A DNA stretch of 64,000 nt, taken from positions 5,607,074 to 5,671,073 of the forward strand of contig NZ_CP041186.1 of assembly GCF_006517175.1 (NCBI RefSeq), read 5' to 3'. The stretch comes from Persicimonas caeni (GTDB taxonomy: Bacteria > Myxococcota_A > Bradymonadia > Bradymonadales > Bradymonadaceae). Below the pieces are notes generated by a model. The model saw only the letters and a list, made by a program, of their open reading frames with translations. It had not been told where the DNA came from and searched no databases. The translations under genes were made by a program, and so were the position numbers. Each line of letters starts with the position of its first letter. Positions within the stretch are counted from its first letter, which is position 1. Shown piece after piece: positions 2-23,872 of the stretch.

Positions 2-520
2 TTCGAGTTCTGTCGAGACGAGATTCCCGAGGAGGCGTGGGACCCCGAGGCGCTGGTCGCCATCTGCGACAGCGTGGACGAGCGCGTCCAGAGCTTCGGG
101 CGCGAGATGATCACCCGCAGGTTTCGCGCCGAGCACGGCCACCTCTACCTGCAGCGGCTCAGCGAGCACCCCACCGTCGAGCTGCAGATCTTTGCGACCA
201 ACTACCTGACGCGCTTTGCCGCCGACGACCCCGAGGCGCTCCAGAGCCTCGACCACTACTTTCGCGCGGTGCTGTCGAAGATCGGCGCGGGACGTGTGGC
301 CAAAGATCGCGTGCTCGCGTTTTTGGAGGCCGAGGCGGCCAAGGATGTCGAAGCGGCGCGCTACGTCGAGGGGTTGCTGCGCCGGCAGGTGGCCACGGTG
401 TCCGTGACCGACAAGGCAGCGTGCATCAAGGTCTTGGCCAAGGTGCGCCGCCAGTGGCCCGAGCTCCCGAGCGCGCTGACCCGTAACGCCCCATCTGTTT
501 ACTCACCCGAGGCGAACTGA
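2..520 (+). CDS. Retron-associated repeat (ARM/HEAT-like) protein, 3' part
   Basis: The reading frame is open from the window edge, so the start lies outside; 172 codons are visible, ending in TGA. The residues are helical and rich in Leu, Ala, Arg and Glu (for example LYLQRLSEHPTVELQIFATN), as in armadillo/HEAT solenoids. The next gene begins 2 nt downstream, so they are co-transcribed. The ARM-SWIM-RT gene order matches, from memory, the published type XIII retron arrangement, in which a repeat protein and a SWIM protein accompany the RT. The family call rests on context plus helical repeat character; no catalytic motif is visible. Confidence 0.7.
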   Translation, partial: FEFCRDEIPEEAWDPEALVAICDSVDERVQSFGREMITRRFRAEHGHLYLQRLSEHPTVELQIFATNYLTRFAADDPEALQSLDHYFRAVLSKIGAGRVAKDRVLAFLEAEAAKDVEAARYVEGLLRRQVATVSVTDKAACIKVLAKVRRQWPELPSALTRNAPSVYSPEAN

Positions 521-522
521 GC

Positions 523-2139
523 ATGCTCTTCGAGTACAAATACAAAGGCTTCTCGGGCGTCAAGACCACGCCGAAGAAGACGGCGATGTCCTTCGTGCCC
601 GACGCGGCGCGCTCGCCGACGTGGTTTCGCGGCACGGTGCATCAGGCGTTGCCGTTCCGTGAGGCGATCTCGGCGCTGCACGACGTGGTCGTCTCGGACC
701 TTCGCTACACGCCCAAAGACCGCGAGGAGTACAAGCGCTGGGTCGCCGAGCAAGAGGAGGTCTGGCTGGCCGAGTACATGAGCCGGGCGGCCGACAACAA
801 GGCGCGCATCGAGGAGATTCGCCGAGAGCTGAGCGAGGTGTATAGCCGCAAGCAACAACTCTTGAAGCCGTTCTACACCGCGCGCCAGCGCTACTTCGAC
901 TACCTGTGGAAGAATAATCGCGACTGGTGGTACGTGCTCGACCCGGTGATCACGGTGCACCCGGACGAGGTCTTCTTCGAGTGTTTCAGCGAGGACGAGT
1001 CGACCTACGCCAGGCTGTCGTGCGGCCACGAGGTGTTCACCCAGCTCGACGACTTCGCCTGCGGCACGACCAATATCGACTACTCGGCCGAGCTGTACGA
1101 CGAGTTCCAAAAGATTCGCACCTACCGCGACACCGAGTTGACGGTCGACCCGCAGGGCTTCTCGGTGCAGACGGCCGAAGACGAGGCGCACCGCGAGGTC
1201 AAAATCGACCTGCCCGACTCGTGGGTGCGCGGCTTCTTGCAGGTCAGCTCCGCGATGAACCTGCCGGGCTACGACATCGACCTGCACCCGATGGACCTGC
1301 ACAATATCTGCTTCAAGCTGCGCCAGCGCCGCGAGAAGGAGGGCCCGCGCTCGCTTCGCTTCCAGCTCGAGCCGGGCGAGCCGGTCTCGATCGTGTTCGA
1401 CCCGTGGGGCACGGTGCTCGAGTGCCCGCGCTCGACCTATCACGGCCACAGGACCGAAGAGGTGCGTATCTGGGGCCGTCGCCGCCTGCACGTGTTGGAG
1501 CGGCTGATTCCGGTGGCCAAGAGCGTCAAGCTCAAGCTCTTGGGCTACGGGATGCCCTCGTTCTGGCTCGTCGACCTGGGCGACATGCAGTTTACGCTGG
1601 GGCTGTCGGGCTGGACGGCCAATGACTGGTCGAAGCAGGGCAACTTCGACCTGCTCGCCCCCCGCGCCGACGTCACGCCCGACATCTCGAAGAAGGTGCT
1701 CGAGGAGCTCGACAAGCAGTGGGTCGCCTCGAGCCAAACGCTCGCCCAGAGCCTGCAGCTTCCGCACGCCGACGTTCTCGGCGCGCTCAGCGCGGCTACG
1801 CAGGCGGGGCTTGCCATCTACGACCTCTCCAAAGAGGTCTGGCGAGCACGCCCGTTGAGCCGAGAGCCGCTGCCGCTCGAGAAGTTGCGCTTCGAGAACG
1901 AGCGCGAGGAGAAGGCGATGCGGCTCATCGGCGAGGCGCAGGTCAGCGTCGAGCGCGGCGCCCAGGCTCGTGTGCTCCGTGGCCGCGTGCACGGCAACGA
2001 GGTGCGCGTGGTCATCGATCTCGACGAGCGCATGGTCGAGGGCGAGTGCACCTGCAATTTCCACGGGCAGAACAAACTTCGAAAAGGCCCGTGCGAGCAT
2101 ATCCTCGCCACGCGCATGAAGGCGAAGAGGACGTCGTGA
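523..2139 (+). CDS. SWIM zinc-finger protein (retron accessory, WHSWIM-like)
   Basis: 538 residues. The C-terminus carries a SWIM zinc-binding motif CxCx(12)CxH: Cys509, Cys511, Cys524, His526. SWIM fingers bind nucleic acid or protein. The remainder is predicted soluble; residues around 380-450 could hold a winged-helix-like segment (inferred, not shown). The ATG follows the upstream stop by 2 nt with GAGG about 10 nt before it. A retron RNA and RT follow directly. In type XIII retrons as I recall them, a winged-helix/SWIM protein is the partner or effector alongside an ARM protein; that role is inferred here from gene order. Confidence 0.8.
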   Translation: MLFEYKYKGFSGVKTTPKKTAMSFVPDAARSPTWFRGTVHQALPFREAISALHDVVVSDLRYTPKDREEYKRWVAEQEEVWLAEYMSRAADNKARIEEIRRELSEVYSRKQQLLKPFYTARQRYFDYLWKNNRDWWYVLDPVITVHPDEVFFECFSEDESTYARLSCGHEVFTQLDDFACGTTNIDYSAELYDEFQKIRTYRDTELTVDPQGFSVQTAEDEAHREVKIDLPDSWVRGFLQVSSAMNLPGYDIDLHPMDLHNICFKLRQRREKEGPRSLRFQLEPGEPVSIVFDPWGTVLECPRSTYHGHRTEEVRIWGRRRLHVLERLIPVAKSVKLKLLGYGMPSFWLVDLGDMQFTLGLSGWTANDWSKQGNFDLLAPRADVTPDISKKVLEELDKQWVASSQTLAQSLQLPHADVLGALSAATQAGLAIYDLSKEVWRARPLSREPLPLEKLRFENEREEKAMRLIGEAQVSVERGAQARVLRGRVHGNEVRVVIDLDERMVEGECTCNFHGQNKLRKGPCEHILATRMKAKRTS

Positions 2140-2178
2140 ACGTTGACCCAACGGACATCTTTACGATAGCCTCGCGCT

Positions 2179-2400
2179 CCAGCAGTGAGAGGGCAGCACC
2201 TTGCATCATGAGCGGCGATTCGCCGTTCGCGATCAAAGCCCTACAACGCGTCACTGACTCGCTCGTGACTGTGCGGCCTAACCCTCCCCGGGCGCCGCTC
2301 CAGTCCGGCTTCGGTGAAGCGAGCGGCGCCCGGGGAGGGTGGCCGCTTGAGTTGAGCGATCCAGTCAACAGACTGGCACGAAGGTCCCTCTCACTGCTGG
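2179..2400 (+). ncRNA. Retron msr-msd RNA
   Basis: All retron RNA hallmarks are readable. A 15-nt perfect inverted pair a1 (2179-2193, CCAGCAGTGAGAGGG) and a2 (2386-2400) closes the structure. Directly after a1 comes CAGC, whose G2196 is the likely branching guanosine. The msr part has small stem-loops at 2213-2225 and 2250-2269. The msd is a long hairpin: 20 perfect base pairs (2281-2300 with 2321-2340) extended by GCGGCC/GGCCGC (2273-2278 with 2341-2346), with a 20-nt loop. About 77 nt separate a1 from the msd stem. It sits 70 nt before the RT start, as in myxobacterial retrons. The exact msDNA ends cannot be read from sequence. Confidence 0.92.
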
Positions 2401-2470
2401 AACCTTTTTGGGGAGCCGCTCCGTTTTCCCACACACCCCACACAATTTGGTCGCACCGCTCGGAGGCAGC

Positions 2471-3997
2471 ATGACGAGGCCGTCGCGAGAAGAGCTGTAC
2501 AGGCGTATCCGCGAGAGCTCGAAGGATTCGGTCATCCTCGACGAGATGTTGCGTCTGGGGTTTTGGGATTCGGAGGAGGGCGCCAACGATGTGCCCGAGG
2601 AGCTGATTCGCCGCGAGGCCGAGCTTCGCCAGGAACTGCGAAAGCTCACCGCCCAACAGCGCCGCTACGAGAACCGCGACGCCGCCTTGAAGGCGATGCG
2701 AAAGGAGCGGCTTCGCGAGTCGCGCGAGAAACGCGCGGCCAACAAGCAGCGGCGCAAAGAGGAGCGGCTCGCCCGCGCCATGGCGTGGGACGAGACCCAA
2801 AAGACCCATATCGTCTACCTGGGCGAAGACGTCTCCACGCACCTCGAGAAGCTCGACTACGACGCCGAGAAGCTCGCCAAGCACGCGCTGCCCGACTTCC
2901 CCGACCACGTCGCCCTCGCCGACGCGCTGGGCGTGTCGATGGCCGAGCTGCGCTTTCTGGCCTACCACCGCGAGGTGTCGACGGTGACCCACTACCGTCG
3001 CTTCCAGATGCCCAAAAAGCGCGGCGGCTTCCGCAATATCTCGGCGCCGATGCCGCGGCTCAAGCGCGCGCAGACCTGGATTCTGGAGAATATCCTCGAC
3101 CACGTCCCGCTTCGCGACGAGGCCCACGGGTTTCGGCCGTCACGCTCGATCGTGTCGAACGCCCGGCCGCACGTCGGCCAGGACGTCGTCATCAACATGG
3201 ACGTCAAAGACTTCTTCCCGACGGTCACGTTGTGGCGGGTCTTCGGGGTCTTCGAGTCGCTCGGCTACTCGCCGTCGGTCGCCACGATTCTGGCGCTGTT
3301 GTGCACCGAGCTTCCCGTCGAAGAGCTCGAGCTCGACGGCAAGACCTGGTACGTGGCCACCGGCGAGCGCTGCCTACCGCAAGGCGGGCCGACGAGCCCC
3401 GCGATCACCAATATCTTGTGCCGACGCATGGACGCTCGCCTGGCGGGCATCGCCGACAAGCACGGCTTCGTCTACACGCGCTACGCCGACGACCTGACGT
3501 TCTCGGCCTCCGGCGAAGCCGCCGAAGCGGTCACCAAGCTTCTGTGGCACGTCAAAACCGTCGTTCAGGAAGAGGGCTTCGAGCTGCACCCCGACAAGCA
3601 GCGCATCATGCGAAGCGGGCGCCGCCAAGAGGTGACCGGGCTGGTGGTCAACGACCGTTTGTCGGTGCCGCGCGACGACGTGCGCGCCTTCCGCGCGTTG
3701 CTCCACCGCGTCAAGACCGCCGGCCTCGAGCGCGCCCACTGGAAGGGCGAGAGCGACAACCTGCTCGACCGCATCCACGGGTTCGCCAGCTTCGTGCACA
3801 TGGTCGACGCCGAGCGCTACGCCGAGCTGCGCGCGGAGGCCAAAGAGGTGCTCGACGCCCACGGGTACGCGCCGCAGCCGGTGCCGCCGAAGCCGAAGTC
3901 CGAGCGCCAAGATGCCTCGGCCGAGGGCGACGGCGCTGCGAAGCCCAAAAAGGGGCTGTGGGCGAAGATCAAAGGCTTCTTTGCCGGGGCGGACTGA
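2471..3997 (+). CDS. ret: Retron reverse transcriptase
   Basis: 508 residues from the ATG preceded by GGAGG; a longer frame from 2408 would overlap the RNA leader. It makes msDNA by 2',5'-branched priming on the msr-msd RNA. Visible motifs: NAxxH at 230-234, catalytic Asp244 in NMDVKDFFP, the LPQGGPTSP loop, YADD at 338-341 and the retron-specific VTG at 388-390. An N-terminal region of about 130 residues is charged and coiled-coil-like (about 45-110); this N-terminal extension resembles myxobacterial RTs such as that of Mx162. The tail is Lys/Pro-rich. Together with the two upstream genes it forms a probable anti-phage retron. Confidence 0.95.
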   Translation: MTRPSREELYRRIRESSKDSVILDEMLRLGFWDSEEGANDVPEELIRREAELRQELRKLTAQQRRYENRDAALKAMRKERLRESREKRAANKQRRKEERLARAMAWDETQKTHIVYLGEDVSTHLEKLDYDAEKLAKHALPDFPDHVALADALGVSMAELRFLAYHREVSTVTHYRRFQMPKKRGGFRNISAPMPRLKRAQTWILENILDHVPLRDEAHGFRPSRSIVSNARPHVGQDVVINMDVKDFFPTVTLWRVFGVFESLGYSPSVATILALLCTELPVEELELDGKTWYVATGERCLPQGGPTSPAITNILCRRMDARLAGIADKHGFVYTRYADDLTFSASGEAAEAVTKLLWHVKTVVQEEGFELHPDKQRIMRSGRRQEVTGLVVNDRLSVPRDDVRAFRALLHRVKTAGLERAHWKGESDNLLDRIHGFASFVHMVDAERYAELRAEAKEVLDAHGYAPQPVPPKPKSERQDASAEGDGAAKPKKGLWAKIKGFFAGAD

Positions 3998-4013: not shown

Positions 4014-4086
4014 GGACTGTCGTCTTTCGGTGCGAGTGCCCCCGCACCGAGTAGACGAGGGCAAGATGCTCTCGCACCGACAGTCA
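4014..4086 (+). repeat. R2 palindromic repeat copy (reverse) between convergent genes
   Basis: This inverted-orientation copy of the R2 element (core TTCGGTGCG...CGCACCGAA) lies in the gap between the convergent RT and lipoprotein genes. The outer arms GACTGTCG and CGACAGTC extend the stem. It could act as a bidirectional terminator, but there is no T-run. Related copies are at 26834, 48628-48821 and 50562. Confidence 0.7.
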
Positions 4087-5061
4087 AAGCTCATCGAAAC
4101 AAATCTCGACCCGATTGACCACGAGGCTGTTCGACGGAGGGCCGGCGCGTAGTCGCAAGAGCGTGCCGTTGTCGCCGGCGGGCAGCGCGGCGGTCGCGTC
4201 GGCGCGGTACCACTCGTAGGGCGCGCTGTTGTGAACGAAGCCCGAGGGTGTGGCGCCGGTGCCCGAGAAGGTCTGCCAGGTGAAGCTTCCCGGCGAGGTG
4301 GTGTTGAAGCTTCGGCCGTATAGCGCAATCGTGACCTTGTCGAGGGGCCCGAGCCCGTCGGTGCTCAGCTCGATGTCGATGAAGACCGTGCCGCTCAACT
4401 CGAGGCCGCCTTCCCCCAGAAACGTATCCGTGTAGACCGGCGAGTAGCTGAAGCTCGACGAGTACGCCCCGACTCTCCAGCGCGAAGTGTCGGGCAGCTC
4501 GTTGACCTCGTAGTCGACGTATGCCGTCGAGTTGGGGCCGTTGCCCTCCCAGCCAAATCGCACCGCGTGGGTGCCGGTCGCGCCCGAGATGCAGTCGCCC
4601 GTGGCGGAGGCGACGTCGGGCTGCGCGTCGACGCCCATGTCGGTTGTGTCGGTCGTGTCGGCTGTGTCGAGAGCGGTATCAGACACCGTGTCTGCGGTGT
4701 CGAGGTCGGTATCAGACCCCGTGTCGGCCGCGTCTGCCGTATCCGTGGGCGCATCCGAAGCAGTGTCGTTCGGCGCGTCTGTTGCAGTGTCAGATACGGT
4801 GTCCGACGTCGTGTCAGATACGGTGTCAGATGTGGTGTCAGCGGTCGTGTTGGCATCTCGAGCCACGTCCGCCGCGTCGTCTGCGTCGTCTGCGTCGTCT
4901 ACGTTGGCAGTGTCGGCAAGGGCAATCGCATCGAGCGCCACATCCCCGCCGTCGAGATCCTGCTCGTCCTCGCAGGAGCATCCTTGCGTGGTCGCGAGGA
5001 GGACCAGCGCTGAAAAGAGGAGCAAGCGTTTCGATACCAGCGTCGTGTTCGATGTCTTCAT
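4084..5061 (-). CDS. Asp/Thr-rich surface lipoprotein
   Basis: 325 residues from ATG 5061 (AGGTGA upstream); an upstream in-frame extension to 5172 is not needed. The signal peptide ends in lipobox LATTQGC. A linker of about 110 residues follows, made of Asp, Thr, Ala and Ser repeats (DTTSDTVSDT-like), then a C-terminal beta-rich domain of about 170 residues without recognised family features. Probably outer-membrane anchored and extracellular. The low-complexity linker resembles cell-wall-spanning stalks of myxobacterial lipoproteins. Function unknown. Confidence 0.8.
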   Translation of the reverse strand: MKTSNTTLVSKRLLLFSALVLLATTQGCSCEDEQDLDGGDVALDAIALADTANVDDADDADDAADVARDANTTADTTSDTVSDTTSDTVSDTATDAPNDTASDAPTDTADAADTGSDTDLDTADTVSDTALDTADTTDTTDMGVDAQPDVASATGDCISGATGTHAVRFGWEGNGPNSTAYVDYEVNELPDTSRWRVGAYSSSFSYSPVYTDTFLGEGGLELSGTVFIDIELSTDGLGPLDKVTIALYGRSFNTTSPGSFTWQTFSGTGATPSGFVHNSAPYEWYRADATAALPAGDNGTLLRLRAGPPSNSLVVNRVEICFDEL

Positions 5062-5200
5062 GTCACCTATCATTCCAGACTCTCGGCGGGCGGTAAATGG
5101 TCCCGCCCACTCGTCCCTTACTGATCGGTAACTTGTTGGCTCATCGCCCCGAAAGCTAGTGTTTGGGCCCATTTGAGACGGTTAAGAAGGGTCAATCATC

Positions 5201-22383: not shown

Positions 22384-22778
22384 GGGGGAGGTGTCGAGCG
22401 TGGTTTGCGAGACGGAAGGGGCCCGGTCGCATGGCAAGGGCTGACGTAGGGCGACACTCTAATGGCCGTTTCGCGAGGTCGCCGTCCAACCTCGCCGCTA
22501 ATAGCGGGCGTGGGAGACCTGCAAGGCTCGCAATTCGAACGGAGGAGCCACCTTCCACCCGCTTGTAGCTTCTCGACTCAAAGGGGGAGGTGTCGAGCGT
22601 GGTTTGCGAGACGGAAGGGGCCCGGTCGCATGGCAAGGGCTGACGTAGGGCGACACTCTAATGGCCGTTTCGCGAGGTCGCCGTCCAACCTCGCCGCTAA
22701 TAGCGGGCGTGGGAGACCTGCAAGGCTCGCAATTCGAACGGAGGAGCCACCTTCCACCCGCTTGTAGCTTCTCGACTC
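22383..22778 (+). repeat. 199-bp direct tandem duplication
   Basis: Positions 22383-22579 and 22582-22778 are identical as far as I can read (period 199). Each unit starts GGGGGAGGTGTCGAGCG, which resembles half of the R1 repeat, and contains a hairpin GCGAGGT...ACCTCGC followed by TAATAGCGGGCG, also seen near 28620. No gene is evident; open frames in it are by-products of the repeat. Confidence 0.93.
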
Positions 22779-22861
22779 GAAAACGTGCGACCGGTAGCGC
22801 ATCTATGGCCGGCTGTCACCGCTGGGAAACTCTACCGGATCGAAGCACGTCTGGAGCTGAA

Positions 22862-23872
22862 ATGAGCCCGATGCATATTGTCTACGGATTAGTCTTCGAC
22901 GAGCACGACGAGCGCGTGCTGATGGTACAAAACGACCGTGGCCGCGGCTGGAGTCTTCCCGGTGGCGGCCAAGAACGCGGCGAATCGCTCGCCGAGACGG
23001 CGCGTCGTGAGGTGTTCGAGGAGACGGGGTACGACACCGAGCCCTATAAGCTCGTGGCTATCAGCGAGCGTCTGGGGGCGTGCGACGCCACGTTCTTCGT
23101 CTTCGCGTGCCGGCTGTTGGAGCCCGAGCCTGTCGGCAGGCCCGACGACGCCGAGATTCACGAGGTTGCGTGGATGGAGGTCGATCGGGCCGATGAACTG
23201 ATGCCGTGGTATCCGGTCTCGGTCGCCGAGATGCGTCGGCGCTTCGAGGCGAGCTACTTTGTGGACCGTGAAGCCGTATCGTCGGACGAGCGGGAGGACG
23301 GGGAGCACTTCTCAGTGTCCATCGCGCCGATGAGCCTGACGCACGGAGCCATCACGCTGCACCTCATCACCGAGCAGAGTGTGGCTGAACTCGAGGAGTA
23401 CCTGCGCGACAACCGCGATAGCCAGACGTTCATCGACGCCGTTCGTGCGCACTATCTGCCACGTTACGACGCCGAAGGCCGGCGCACTAAGTGGGGCTTC
23501 TACGCTGTGAACGACGGCGAGGTCGTCGGATGCAGCCTGCTGGGGATCGGCAGTTGGCCCGTCCGTCGAGGCTACACTGGGGCGTTCACGCTGCCCGAGA
23601 TGCGTGGCCGGGGCATTGCACCCGGCAGCAAGCCGCATCTGTTCTACCTTGGCTTCGAACTCCTCGGCCTGCACCGCATCGAAACCGGCTGCAACGCTTC
23701 GAACCTCGCCTCGAAGCGGTCCATCGAGAAGACGCCTGGATTTCGGTTCGAGGGGACACTTCGGGGCTACGCCAGGGGGGACGACGGCGAGTTCGAGGAC
23801 GAGCACCGCTACGCGATCGTGCGGGAGGACTGGAAGGCTTTGTACGAGCCTGCCGAGATTGTCGAGGACTGA
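22862..23872 (+). CDS. Nudix hydrolase-GNAT acetyltransferase fusion
   Basis: 336 residues from ATG 22862 with GGAG about 6 nt upstream; the frame extends back into the repeat but that part is not protein-like. Residues about 25-50 hold a complete Nudix box GGGQERGESLAETARREVFE-ETGYD. After about residue 150 a GNAT-type domain follows (GFYAVNDGEVVGCSLLGIG, then GYTGAFTLPEMRGRGI with an acetyl-CoA loop, and LHRIETGCNASNLASKRSIE). The fusion suggests a nucleotide- or amino-linked substrate; unknown. It has no co-directional neighbour nearby. Confidence 0.88.
   Translation: MSPMHIVYGLVFDEHDERVLMVQNDRGRGWSLPGGGQERGESLAETARREVFEETGYDTEPYKLVAISERLGACDATFFVFACRLLEPEPVGRPDDAEIHEVAWMEVDRADELMPWYPVSVAEMRRRFEASYFVDREAVSSDEREDGEHFSVSIAPMSLTHGAITLHLITEQSVAELEEYLRDNRDSQTFIDAVRAHYLPRYDAEGRRTKWGFYAVNDGEVVGCSLLGIGSWPVRRGYTGAFTLPEMRGRGIAPGSKPHLFYLGFELLGLHRIETGCNASNLASKRSIEKTPGFRFEGTLRGYARGDDGEFEDEHRYAIVREDWKALYEPAEIVED

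What the first reader, a model, noticed from the sequence alone, without database searches (positions are those of the whole stretch)
2..3997. Complete retron with a readable msr-msd and a SWIM/ARM partner pair
The a1/a2 pair (15 bp perfect), a likely branching G, a 26-bp msd stem and RT motifs NAxxH, YADD and VTG all occur in order. The ARM-SWIM-RT gene set fits type XIII retrons as I recall them. The SWIM protein is a candidate effector or regulator, and its mechanism is little known. The upstream repeat gene is cut by the window edge.
Basis: partly seen in the sequence, partly recalled or inferred. Interest (0 to 1): 0.85.

Follow-up and report, generated by a model that had tools for sequence, protein, structure and literature searches.

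The report
Retron with a sliding-clamp-like partner
This is a bacterial retron, a gene set that copies a small RNA into a DNA hairpin and is usually linked to defence against viruses, and one of its two little-understood partner proteins is predicted to fold like the ring-shaped clamp that holds DNA polymerases on DNA, which suggests how the system might work.

Summary
The window starts inside a WGR-HEAT gene (complete in the genome, 1035 aa), followed by a SWIM gene, an msr-msd RNA and a retron reverse transcriptase. PADLOC's type XIII models match all three proteins (984, 749 and 618 bits). The RNA is real: 29 of 36 pairs covary over 52 sequences from several phyla. The locus is a new member of type XIII.

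Three things go beyond that. (1) The SWIM protein is predicted to contain a two-domain PCNA sliding-clamp fold (residues 34-371; Z 19.6 to archaeal PCNA, Foldseek E 1.9e-9), not seen by Pfam, followed by a winged-helix-like stretch and the SWIM zinc finger. (2) Many non-cyanobacterial RTs of this subgroup end in a tethered aromatic tip (36 of 47 by a strict pattern; 0 of 28 cyanobacterial), reminiscent of clamp-binding tails. (3) In some cyanobacteria the genes are scattered, yet strong RT, SWIM and WGR matches co-occur (the same 9 of 145 genomes).

I propose that RT, msDNA, clamp-like protein and WGR-HEAT protein form one DNA-handling complex, probably anti-phage. Ring formation, tail docking, msDNA production and defence are untested.

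The parts
2..520 (+). C-terminal 172 residues of the WGR-HEAT partner; the gene starts upstream of the window (genome C1:5604486; 1035 aa in all)
   Evidence: PADLOC WGR_XIII 983.7 bits over residues 4-1028, Pfam WGR residues 15-82; model of the Archangium homologue (not of this gene): WGR-like N-terminal domain plus helical solenoid, mean pLDDT 87.5
523..2139 (+). 'SWIM' partner, 538 aa: PCNA-like two-domain clamp fold (residues 34-371, helical insert about 60-136), winged-helix-like stretch (about 386-445), SWIM zinc finger (494-529)
   Evidence: PADLOC SWIM_XIII 749.4 bits; AF2 mean pLDDT 75.6, pTM 0.71; Foldseek E 1.9e-9 and VIA-align Z 19.6, rmsd 2.7, 233 residues, to PCNA; Pfam SWIM E 0.0011, just under its cut-off, 34 of 36 family members match at E <= 5
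2178..2401 (+). msr-msd non-coding RNA, 224 nt from a1 to a2
   Evidence: covariance model R1: 151.5 bits, E 5e-37 (this sequence is one of the 52 in the model, so it matches partly by construction); covariation; the only match in the own genome among the 150 of 1155 candidates that were scored
2178..2193 (+). a1 arm
   Evidence: 16 nt, 100% complementary to 2386-2401
2203..2203 (+). candidate branching guanosine, in CTTGC
   Evidence: TTGC columns at least 90% conserved in 52 sequences; L182 (Nannocystis pusilla) has CTAGC there, the usual TAGC context (TAGC from PMC6868368, passage); inferred
2210..2228 (+). conserved msr hairpin
   Evidence: helix 1 of the consensus: 99.0% of cells paired, 4 of 8 pairs with changes on both sides
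2253..2365 (+). msd hairpin with a sequence-conserved internal loop (GTGACTGTG opposite TTGAGTTGA) and a variable but covarying stem (2281-2340)
   Evidence: helices 2-6 of the consensus, 78-97% of cells paired; repeats I1 and I5
2386..2401 (+). a2 arm; the template for the msDNA 5' end should lie just before it (CGAAGG, 2379-2384)
   Evidence: template start inferred
2471..3997 (+). retron reverse transcriptase, 508 aa, with an N-terminal extension (about residues 1-145) and a C-terminal tail ending KKGLWAKIKGFFAGAD
   Evidence: PADLOC RT_XIII 617.8 bits; Pfam RVT_1 E 1.3e-25; tree; tail

Best explanation
It is a type XIII retron. Well supported by sequence: one operon-like set encodes a WGR-HEAT protein, a SWIM protein, an msr-msd RNA and a retron RT. 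Inferred from retron biology: the RT primes from a conserved G after a1 and copies the msd into a hairpin DNA of roughly 140-150 nt. Predicted by modelling: the SWIM protein contains a PCNA-like clamp. Inferred further: this clamp-like protein binds or encircles duplex DNA (the msDNA stem, foreign DNA or both), the RT is tethered to it through its C-terminal tail, and the WGR-HEAT protein recognises DNA ends or branches and scaffolds the complex. Most likely the msDNA particle keeps the DNA-binding partners in check, and phage damage to the msDNA frees them to block phage DNA. My split: type XIII retron 0.97; clamp fold 0.8; one physical complex 0.7; tail-clamp docking 0.4; anti-phage role 0.6; msDNA as the lock 0.35.
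For: PADLOC models; the window RT lies in a 64-row group with SH-aLRT 99. RNA: 94.0% of pair cells are standard against 34-43% when the partners are slid, 29 of 36 pairs with changes on both sides against 18.9 shuffled; found in 13 of 13 group-A loci of the window's phylum and 72 of 78 named relatives searched, 33 of those 72 not being in the model. Clamp fold: Foldseek best E 1.9e-9, the 50 rows shown all PCNA or related clamps; VIA-align Z 19.6. Charge: the four inner-helix segments sum to +5.75 on average and the rest of the clamp region to -11.8, 36 sequences. One unit: in 145 cyanobacterial genomes SWIM over 780 bits and RT over 600 bits occur in the same 9, and WGR over 1000 bits in those 9 plus 1 cut by a contig end; in 377 genomes of the window's phylum, WGR over 900 bits and RT over 570 bits mark the same 13. 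RT tails: 36 of 47 non-cyanobacterial group-A RTs end in the strict tip, shuffled tails 38 of 9400.
Against: No experiment. The clamp fold rests on one predicted model of middling confidence (mean pLDDT 75.6; residues 58-67, 77-93, 132-138 and 365-374 under 50), and no clamp family was among the 25 of 40 Pfam families listed for 36 members at E <= 5. The first inner helix is slightly acidic (mean -1.7). The strict tip pattern was written after seeing the tails; the window's own RT does not fit it, cyanobacterial RTs lack it (0 of 28), and so do group B/C RTs of type XIII (0 of 37), so docking cannot be universal; one SWIM protein (L090) ends in a similar tip. The score cut-offs for co-occurrence were set after seeing the tables: two more cyanobacterial genomes have weaker SWIM and RT without WGR (G422, G506), and two have RT of 463-535 bits without SWIM (G525, G532). 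In 17 of 63 RNA copies the a1/a2 score does not beat the best of 30 shuffles. Of 10 neighbouring ORFs tested, 9 match no defence model and one weakly. No recognised toxin or catalytic domain was found in either partner, so the effector step is a guess.
Confidence: 0.55

Rival explanations
1. A type XIII retron whose clamp-like fold is only a scaffold: the SWIM and WGR-HEAT proteins are an ordinary toxin or effector pair that never encircles DNA, and the msDNA acts as antitoxin as in better-known retrons.
For: Retrons are usually RT, RNA and effector (PMC12548924, start of abstract in the listing); a shared fold does not show shared function (caveat printed). Distant SWIM relatives without a type XIII RT beside them sit next to a DUF6493 gene in 3 of 5 loci fetched, so the partners can exist apart from reverse transcription.
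Against: No toxin or enzyme domain detected in either partner; the clamp region is conserved throughout (many invariant residues between 46 and 381).
Confidence: 0.2
2. Not defence but a resident DNA-maintenance device: the msDNA and clamp-like complex acts in repair, recombination or replication-fork handling.
For: Base composition matches the surroundings and no clear defence island was seen among 10 ORFs tested. In some cyanobacteria the genes are scattered but kept together in the genome, and the cyanobacterial RTs form one nested group with a single acidobacterial row inside. WGR and clamp folds are known from DNA repair in eukaryotes (recalled).
Against: Patchy occurrence (9 of 145 cyanobacterial genomes; 13 of 377 in the window's phylum) and spread over many phyla at 53-59% identity look more like a defence gene than a housekeeping one.
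Confidence: 0.2
3. The locus is not a working retron: the RNA or one gene is decayed.
For: Only hints: the window's RT branch is long (0.64) and its RNA departs from the consensus at several conserved positions.
Against: All frames open, catalytic YADD present, perfect a1/a2 and msd stem core, RNA model E 5e-37.
Confidence: 0.03

Closest known systems
Type XIII retrons (PADLOC models RT_XIII, SWIM_XIII, WGR_XIII, HEAT-ARM_XIII; type defined by Mestre et al. 2020, recalled, paper not held)
   Same: All three proteins match the type's models strongly
   Different: Belongs to the subgroup (group A here) in which the HEAT partner carries an N-terminal WGR domain and, in the window's phylum, the RNA lies between SWIM and RT. 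In 18 of 36 other type XIII loci compared (L103 left out) SWIM and RT lie within 25 nt of each other; the one large upstream protein of these that was tested (L101, 1488 aa) matches HEAT-ARM_XIII at 1307 bits
Myxobacterial retrons Mx162, Sa163, Mx65 and Ne144
   Same: Their RTs have N-terminal extensions and grouped with putative cyanobacterial RTs; Mx162 has a 241-nt transcript and a 162-nt msd (PMC6868368, passages). Here: N-terminal extension, 224-nt a1-a2 element, cyanobacterial relatives
   Different: Sequences of those retrons were not compared; the branching context here is TTGC, not the CAGC given for Mx162 and Sa163. That Ne144 belongs to this subgroup is a guess from its size and from the Nannocystis members here (L182, L188, L192, L203)
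PCNA / 9-1-1 sliding clamps
   Same: Predicted fold of residues 34-371 covers the whole two-domain PCNA subunit
   Different: About 10% identity, large helical insert, extra C-terminal domains, bacterial; no clamp family among the Pfam families listed; ring formation unknown
Ne160 (Retron-Nex1)
   Same: Described as repeated msr-msd copies with no RT within a kilobase (PMC6868368, passage), like the repeated or RT-distant RNAs seen in some relatives here
   Different: Here the partner proteins are identified and, in several genomes, a distant RT with them; Ne160's sequence was not compared

Membership tests
Retron | RT of the retron clade with NAxxH, YADD and VTG motifs | tested here: met
   (the tree holds only type XIII-like RTs, so the wider placement rests)
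Retron | msr-msd RNA with a1/a2 repeats, branching G and msd hairpin next to the RT | tested here: met
   the branching G itself is inferred
Retron | msDNA produced in vivo | not testable with these tools
   needs extraction from cells
Type XIII retron | RT_XIII, SWIM_XIII and a HEAT-ARM or WGR type XIII protein together | tested here: met
   617.8, 749.4 and 983.7 bits in one gene set
Type XIII retron | PADLOC or DefenseFinder system call on the contig | not tested
   only the protein models were run, not the system rules
Anti-phage defence system | Protects a host from phage | not testable with these tools
   no experiment; 9 of 10 neighbouring ORFs tested match no defence model
PCNA-type sliding clamp | Two clamp domains (beta-alpha-beta3-beta-alpha-beta3) per subunit | tested here: met
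   predicted model only: Z 19.6, 233 residues, rmsd 2.7
PCNA-type sliding clamp | Recognised by PCNA sequence profiles | tested here: not met
   36 members scanned against Pfam at E <= 5; 25 of 40 families were listed and none is a clamp. It is therefore called clamp-like, not a PCNA
PCNA-type sliding clamp | Closed ring around DNA, binding partner peptides | not testable with these tools
   no complex prediction or assay available

The most novel reading that the evidence does not exclude
The WGR-type type XIII retrons carry their own sliding clamp: a PCNA-like ring made by the SWIM protein, to which the RT is tethered by a C-terminal aromatic tail (absent in cyanobacteria) and which holds or slides on the near-constant-length msDNA hairpin. 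The parts act in trans, so the set survives being scattered around a chromosome. It would be a miniature, non-replicative polymerase-clamp machine used against phages.
Probability: 0.35. Interest if true: 0.9.

Novelty: new member of a known kind. Interest (0 to 1): 0.72.

Why it matters
I found no described mechanism for type XIII partners in the library searched. A clamp-like fold gives concrete, quick tests: does the SWIM protein form a ring, does it bind msDNA, does the RT tail dock. If true, a retron would share the polymerase-plus-clamp logic of replication. The scattered cyanobacterial versions would also suggest that a retron RT can work on an RNA encoded far away, and that the operon is not needed for the system to persist. 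If related to the myxobacterial retrons, as the literature grouping suggests, it may bear on what the first-discovered msDNAs do.

Tried and rejected
Rfam gave only sub-threshold matches on the msd hairpin, seven to microRNA families and one to a lncRNA family, rejected as hairpin look-alikes. The upstream protein has no useful fold match beyond generic HEAT/ARM solenoids (Z up to 13.4 with rmsd mostly over 10, in the range the tool warns about), so no function is read from it. The PDB profile search with the SWIM alignment found nothing significant (FANCL, E 0.13). A C-terminal WGR-like domain in group-B SWIM proteins looked plausible by eye but scored only E 0.009-0.28 in the four best-placed members: not claimed. 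A PIP-box-like pattern was sought in the RT tails: the loose 8-residue form fits only the window's RT, 1 of 77. The idea that tail loss goes with gene scattering fails: linked cyanobacterial RTs lack the tail too. The distant SWIM genes next to DUF6493 were examined for MoxR or VWA neighbours, as in E. coli MolR clusters (recalled); none was found in the few ORFs scanned.

Literature: ten searches of an open-licence library. Type XIII with SWIM or msDNA: none. Other retron searches. Clamp or PCNA with retron or SWIM: nothing relevant in the listings. WGR/SWIM/MoxR. In four further papers searched by term, 'XIII' (in one 'type XIII') does not occur in the main text; only passages were seen. This does not show that nothing is in print: the defining type XIII paper is not held.

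Rows dropped: L173 and L193 come from contigs of the same length and match as L091 and L090, were taken as duplicates, and were left out of counts where stated. Eleven redundant RNA rows of 63 were left out of alignment A3, and L091, L096, L098 and L099, missed by the regex, were not put in; the model built from A3 finds all four. In one search a 140-160 nt length filter was applied; the wider filter gave 145-149 for nearly all hits I judged true. Some copies found by the covariance model are longer (for example L185:8658-8906, L213, L222). The RT tree left out seven group B/C rows, six redundant named rows and 8 of the 13 scattered-RT loci. Whole-genome family searches score only the best few candidates per genome (2 to 10 here), so absences are not proof. 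L224 was sent to although it has a linked RT; it is excluded from the counts.

Full report
WHAT WAS CHECKED. The window is positions 5607074-5671073 of a single-contig 8.05 Mb genome. Its first 4 kb hold the end of one gene, a second gene at 523-2139, an intergenic RNA region and a reverse transcriptase at 2471-3997. The first gene is complete in the genome, 1035 aa, and its stop lies 2 nt before the second gene's start, so the genes look like one operon. PADLOC models name them WGR_XIII (983.7 bits), SWIM_XIII (749.4) and RT_XIII (617.8; next RT model 336). Pfam finds WGR at residues 15-82 of the first, a SWIM zinc finger just below its cut-off at 494-529 of the second and RVT_1 in the third.

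THE RT. Solved retron RTs are the best PDB matches (Ec86, E about 1e-43; group II intron RTs about 1e-9). In a tree of 103 RTs, the window's RT falls in a 64-row group (SH-aLRT 99) with 46 other group-A RTs from Myxococcota, Bacteroidota, Planctomycetota, Verrucomicrobiota, Acidobacteriota and a gammaproteobacterium, and 17 cyanobacterial ones (quick method, midpoint root; some rows left out, see Tried and rejected). I call this subgroup A: WGR-HEAT, SWIM, RT. Group B/C is the 37 other SWIM-bearing loci with an RT that I compared, L100-L136.

THE RNA. a1/a2 is a 16-bp perfect repeat (2178-2193, 2386-2401), and the msd stem has a 20-bp perfect core. Aligned with 51 relatives, the consensus has 36 pairs, 29 with changes on both sides; 94.0% of cells pair, against 75.6% after shuffling and 34-43% with partners slid. 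The structure was derived from this alignment, which favours it somewhat, but the margin is large. Conserved in sequence are CTTGC (candidate branching G2203), an msr hairpin and an internal loop of the msd; the rest of the msd stem varies but mostly keeps its pairing. From the hairpin's 3' arm to the far side of the msd the element is 145-151 nt in all 63 copies passing a 140-160 filter and 145-149 in nearly all hits of a wider scan that I judged true; a few copies found later are longer. In 46 of the 63 copies the a1/a2 score beats the best of 30 shuffles, in 17 it does not. A covariance model finds the RNA in the window (151.5 bits), in 13 of 13 group-A loci of the window's phylum (a further, contig-cut one, L012, matches in part), and in 72 of 78 named loci searched; 33 of these 72 were not in the model. 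L151, L164, L178, L208, L212 and L225 lack it, and L173 and L193, taken as duplicates, were not searched. Thirteen of the 72 hold two or three copies (L153, L154, L161, L177, L185, L199, L202, L206, L209, L210, L214, L219, L222). In eight Bacteroidota loci with RT first, the RNA sits before the RT or overlaps the start of its longest frame (L163, L183, L187, L196, L197, L213, L215, L223). The model finds weaker relatives in 5 of the 37 group B/C loci (L104, L108, L110, L115, L122; 21.5-69.5 bits) and none in the other 32 nor in nine loci with other RTs. In the window's genome it gave one match; 150 of 1155 candidates were scored.

THE SWIM PROTEIN. An AlphaFold2 model from 36 sequences (mean pLDDT 75.6, pTM 0.71) shows, between residues 34 and 371, two copies of the clamp-domain order beta-alpha-beta3-beta-alpha-beta3 (my reading of its strands and helices), with a poorly predicted helical insert in the first. 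Foldseek's best PDB matches are PCNA (E 1.9e-9, probability 1.00; 449 chains at E <= 0.001, and the 50 rows shown are PCNAs or related clamps). VIA-align gives Z 19.6, rmsd 2.7, 233 residues of a 244-residue archaeal PCNA at 9% identity, with Z 18.6 still at rank 50. Among predicted viral proteins, PCNAs again lead. No clamp family is among the 25 of 40 Pfam families listed for the 36 members at E <= 5, so the resemblance is structural only. The four inner-helix segments carry a mean net charge of +5.75 against -11.8 for the rest of the clamp region, though the first helix is -1.7 (segment borders chosen by me from the model). After the clamp come a winged-helix-like stretch (weak Pfam matches in a few members) and the zinc finger.

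THE WGR-HEAT PROTEIN. The model of the Archangium homologue (mean pLDDT 87.5) has a strand-rich N-terminal domain, where Pfam places WGR in the window's protein, followed by a long helical solenoid. Fold matches are generic repeat proteins. WGR domains are known from eukaryotic PARPs as DNA-end or nick binders (recalled). Its role as end-sensor or scaffold is inference.

THE RT TAIL. Of 47 complete non-cyanobacterial group-A RTs (two duplicates dropped), 36 end in W-x(1,2)-[ILMVF]-[WFLV] with at most one further residue, often after a long Pro/Ala-rich stretch (for example WWKLW or WWKFW); shuffled tails give 38 of 9400. The pattern was written after seeing the tails. The 11 others include the window's RT (GLWAKIKGFFAGAD) and several variants rich in aromatic residues; L195 has none. 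None of 28 cyanobacterial RTs, 37 group B/C RTs or 9 other RTs has the tip; of the partners, 1 of 13 SWIM proteins (L090) and 0 of 13 WGR proteins do (a slightly different pattern). Some polymerases bind their clamps through such C-terminal peptides (recalled); that this tail binds the SWIM clamp is a hypothesis.

SCATTERED GENES. In 19 cyanobacterial loci no RT lies in the flank held; 18 of those 19 genomes hold a strong type XIII RT elsewhere (L224 excluded; the exception is the genome of L172). How far away varies. On single long contigs the distances are over 1 Mb in three: Calothrix NIES-267, SWIM 1.86 Mb and RT 3.05 Mb; Moorena bouillonii, SWIM 7.55, WGR 2.65 and RT 1.86 Mb; strain ESFC-1, SWIM 3.46, WGR 3.52 and RT 2.30 Mb. 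In six drafts (L149, L150, L156, L171, L185, L189) the RT is on another contig and SWIM has at least 6.3 kb without an RT downstream and 7 kb upstream. In L212 the RT contig ends just after WGR and the SWIM contig begins just before SWIM, so that set may be contiguous in another order; for L169 and L225 short contigs leave linkage open; for L164, L176, L178, L191 and L207 contigs were not compared. Of 13 RT loci fetched (L227-L239), 11 have no RNA; the two that do (L236, L239) belong to genomes whose SWIM locus lacks it (L212, L225). In 12 of the 19 SWIM loci the RNA lies within 400 nt downstream of SWIM (my reading). In Moorena, one species' contiguous set (L198) matches three unlinked blocks of another: WGR with the upstream flank, SWIM with the RNA (1979 bp), and RT with the downstream flank, main pieces at 94.8-97.8% DNA identity; a scaffolding error in the second (its WGR stretch holds 100 N) is possible but would not explain the other genomes. 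In an even sample of 145 genomes of the class, SWIM over 780 bits and RT over 600 bits occur in the same 9, and WGR over 1000 bits in those 9 and one more where the match ends at a contig edge. The cut-offs were set after seeing the tables; below them, G422 and G506 have SWIM and RT without WGR, and G525 and G532 an RT of 463-535 bits without SWIM. In four of the nine, a gene lies far away or on another contig (G380; G402, G447 and G513, whose contig ends were not checked). In the window's phylum (377 genomes), WGR over 900 bits and RT over 570 bits mark the same 13 genomes; SWIM over 725 bits marks these and G005; in G005 and G365 the genes are broken over contigs. In these 13 the three genes lie together.

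MECHANISM. The partners look like an obligate set that can work in trans. A clamp-like protein, a DNA-end-type domain, an RT with a tail and a hairpin DNA of near-constant size point to one DNA-handling particle. I favour an anti-phage role in which the particle restrains or aims the clamp-like and WGR proteins; a resident DNA-maintenance role is the main rival, favoured by the lack of a clear defence island among 10 ORFs tested, even base composition and the nested cyanobacterial group. Neither is tested.

KNOWN OR NEW. As a locus it is a new member of type XIII. The clamp-like fold, the RT tip and the trans arrangement did not turn up for this type in ten searches of an open-licence library (listed under Tried and rejected); the paper that defined the type is not held there. 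A review notes Ne160 msr-msd copies without a nearby RT (PMC6868368, passages read), which is a precedent for part of the scattering.

Noticed in passing
L153, L154, L161, L177, L185, L199, L202, L206, L209, L210, L214, L219, L222: Two or three msr-msd copies in one locus, with different msd stems where compared (L206): one RT may make several msDNAs.
   Followed up: partly
L198 against L201, L228, L240: Within Moorena, a contiguous retron set corresponds to three unlinked blocks in a second species, main pieces at 94.8-97.8% DNA identity.
   Followed up: partly
L244, L245, L246: Distant SWIM_XIII relatives without a type XIII RT beside them lie next to a DUF6493 gene (with DUF7824/DUF7825 in two of the three; 5 loci fetched): a possible RT-free ancestor of the partner pair.
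   Followed up: partly
window genome C1:743081, 1923984, 5837938, 6748406, 6951513: Four RTs in equal-length open frames (383 aa) and one in a 236-aa frame, with near-equal scores, elsewhere in the genome; probably one mobile family such as a group II intron.
   Followed up: no
L229 and L195: Group-A RTs with an unusual extra C-terminal stretch in place of the tip.
   Followed up: no
L098:2978-3421: The SWIM gene reads on for about 147 residues beyond the family's usual end.
   Followed up: no
L153:1-3100: Calothrix NIES-267 has a second WGR-HEAT copy, matched in two pieces, and a second msr-msd just upstream of the main set.
   Followed up: no
window 22661-23869 (+): Weak match to a PADLOC candidate defence family, PDC-S07 (31.7 bits).
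   Followed up: no
window 4084-5172 (-): ORF with a long Asp/Thr/Ser-rich low-complexity stretch and a lipoprotein-like start, right after the retron (my reading).
   Followed up: no
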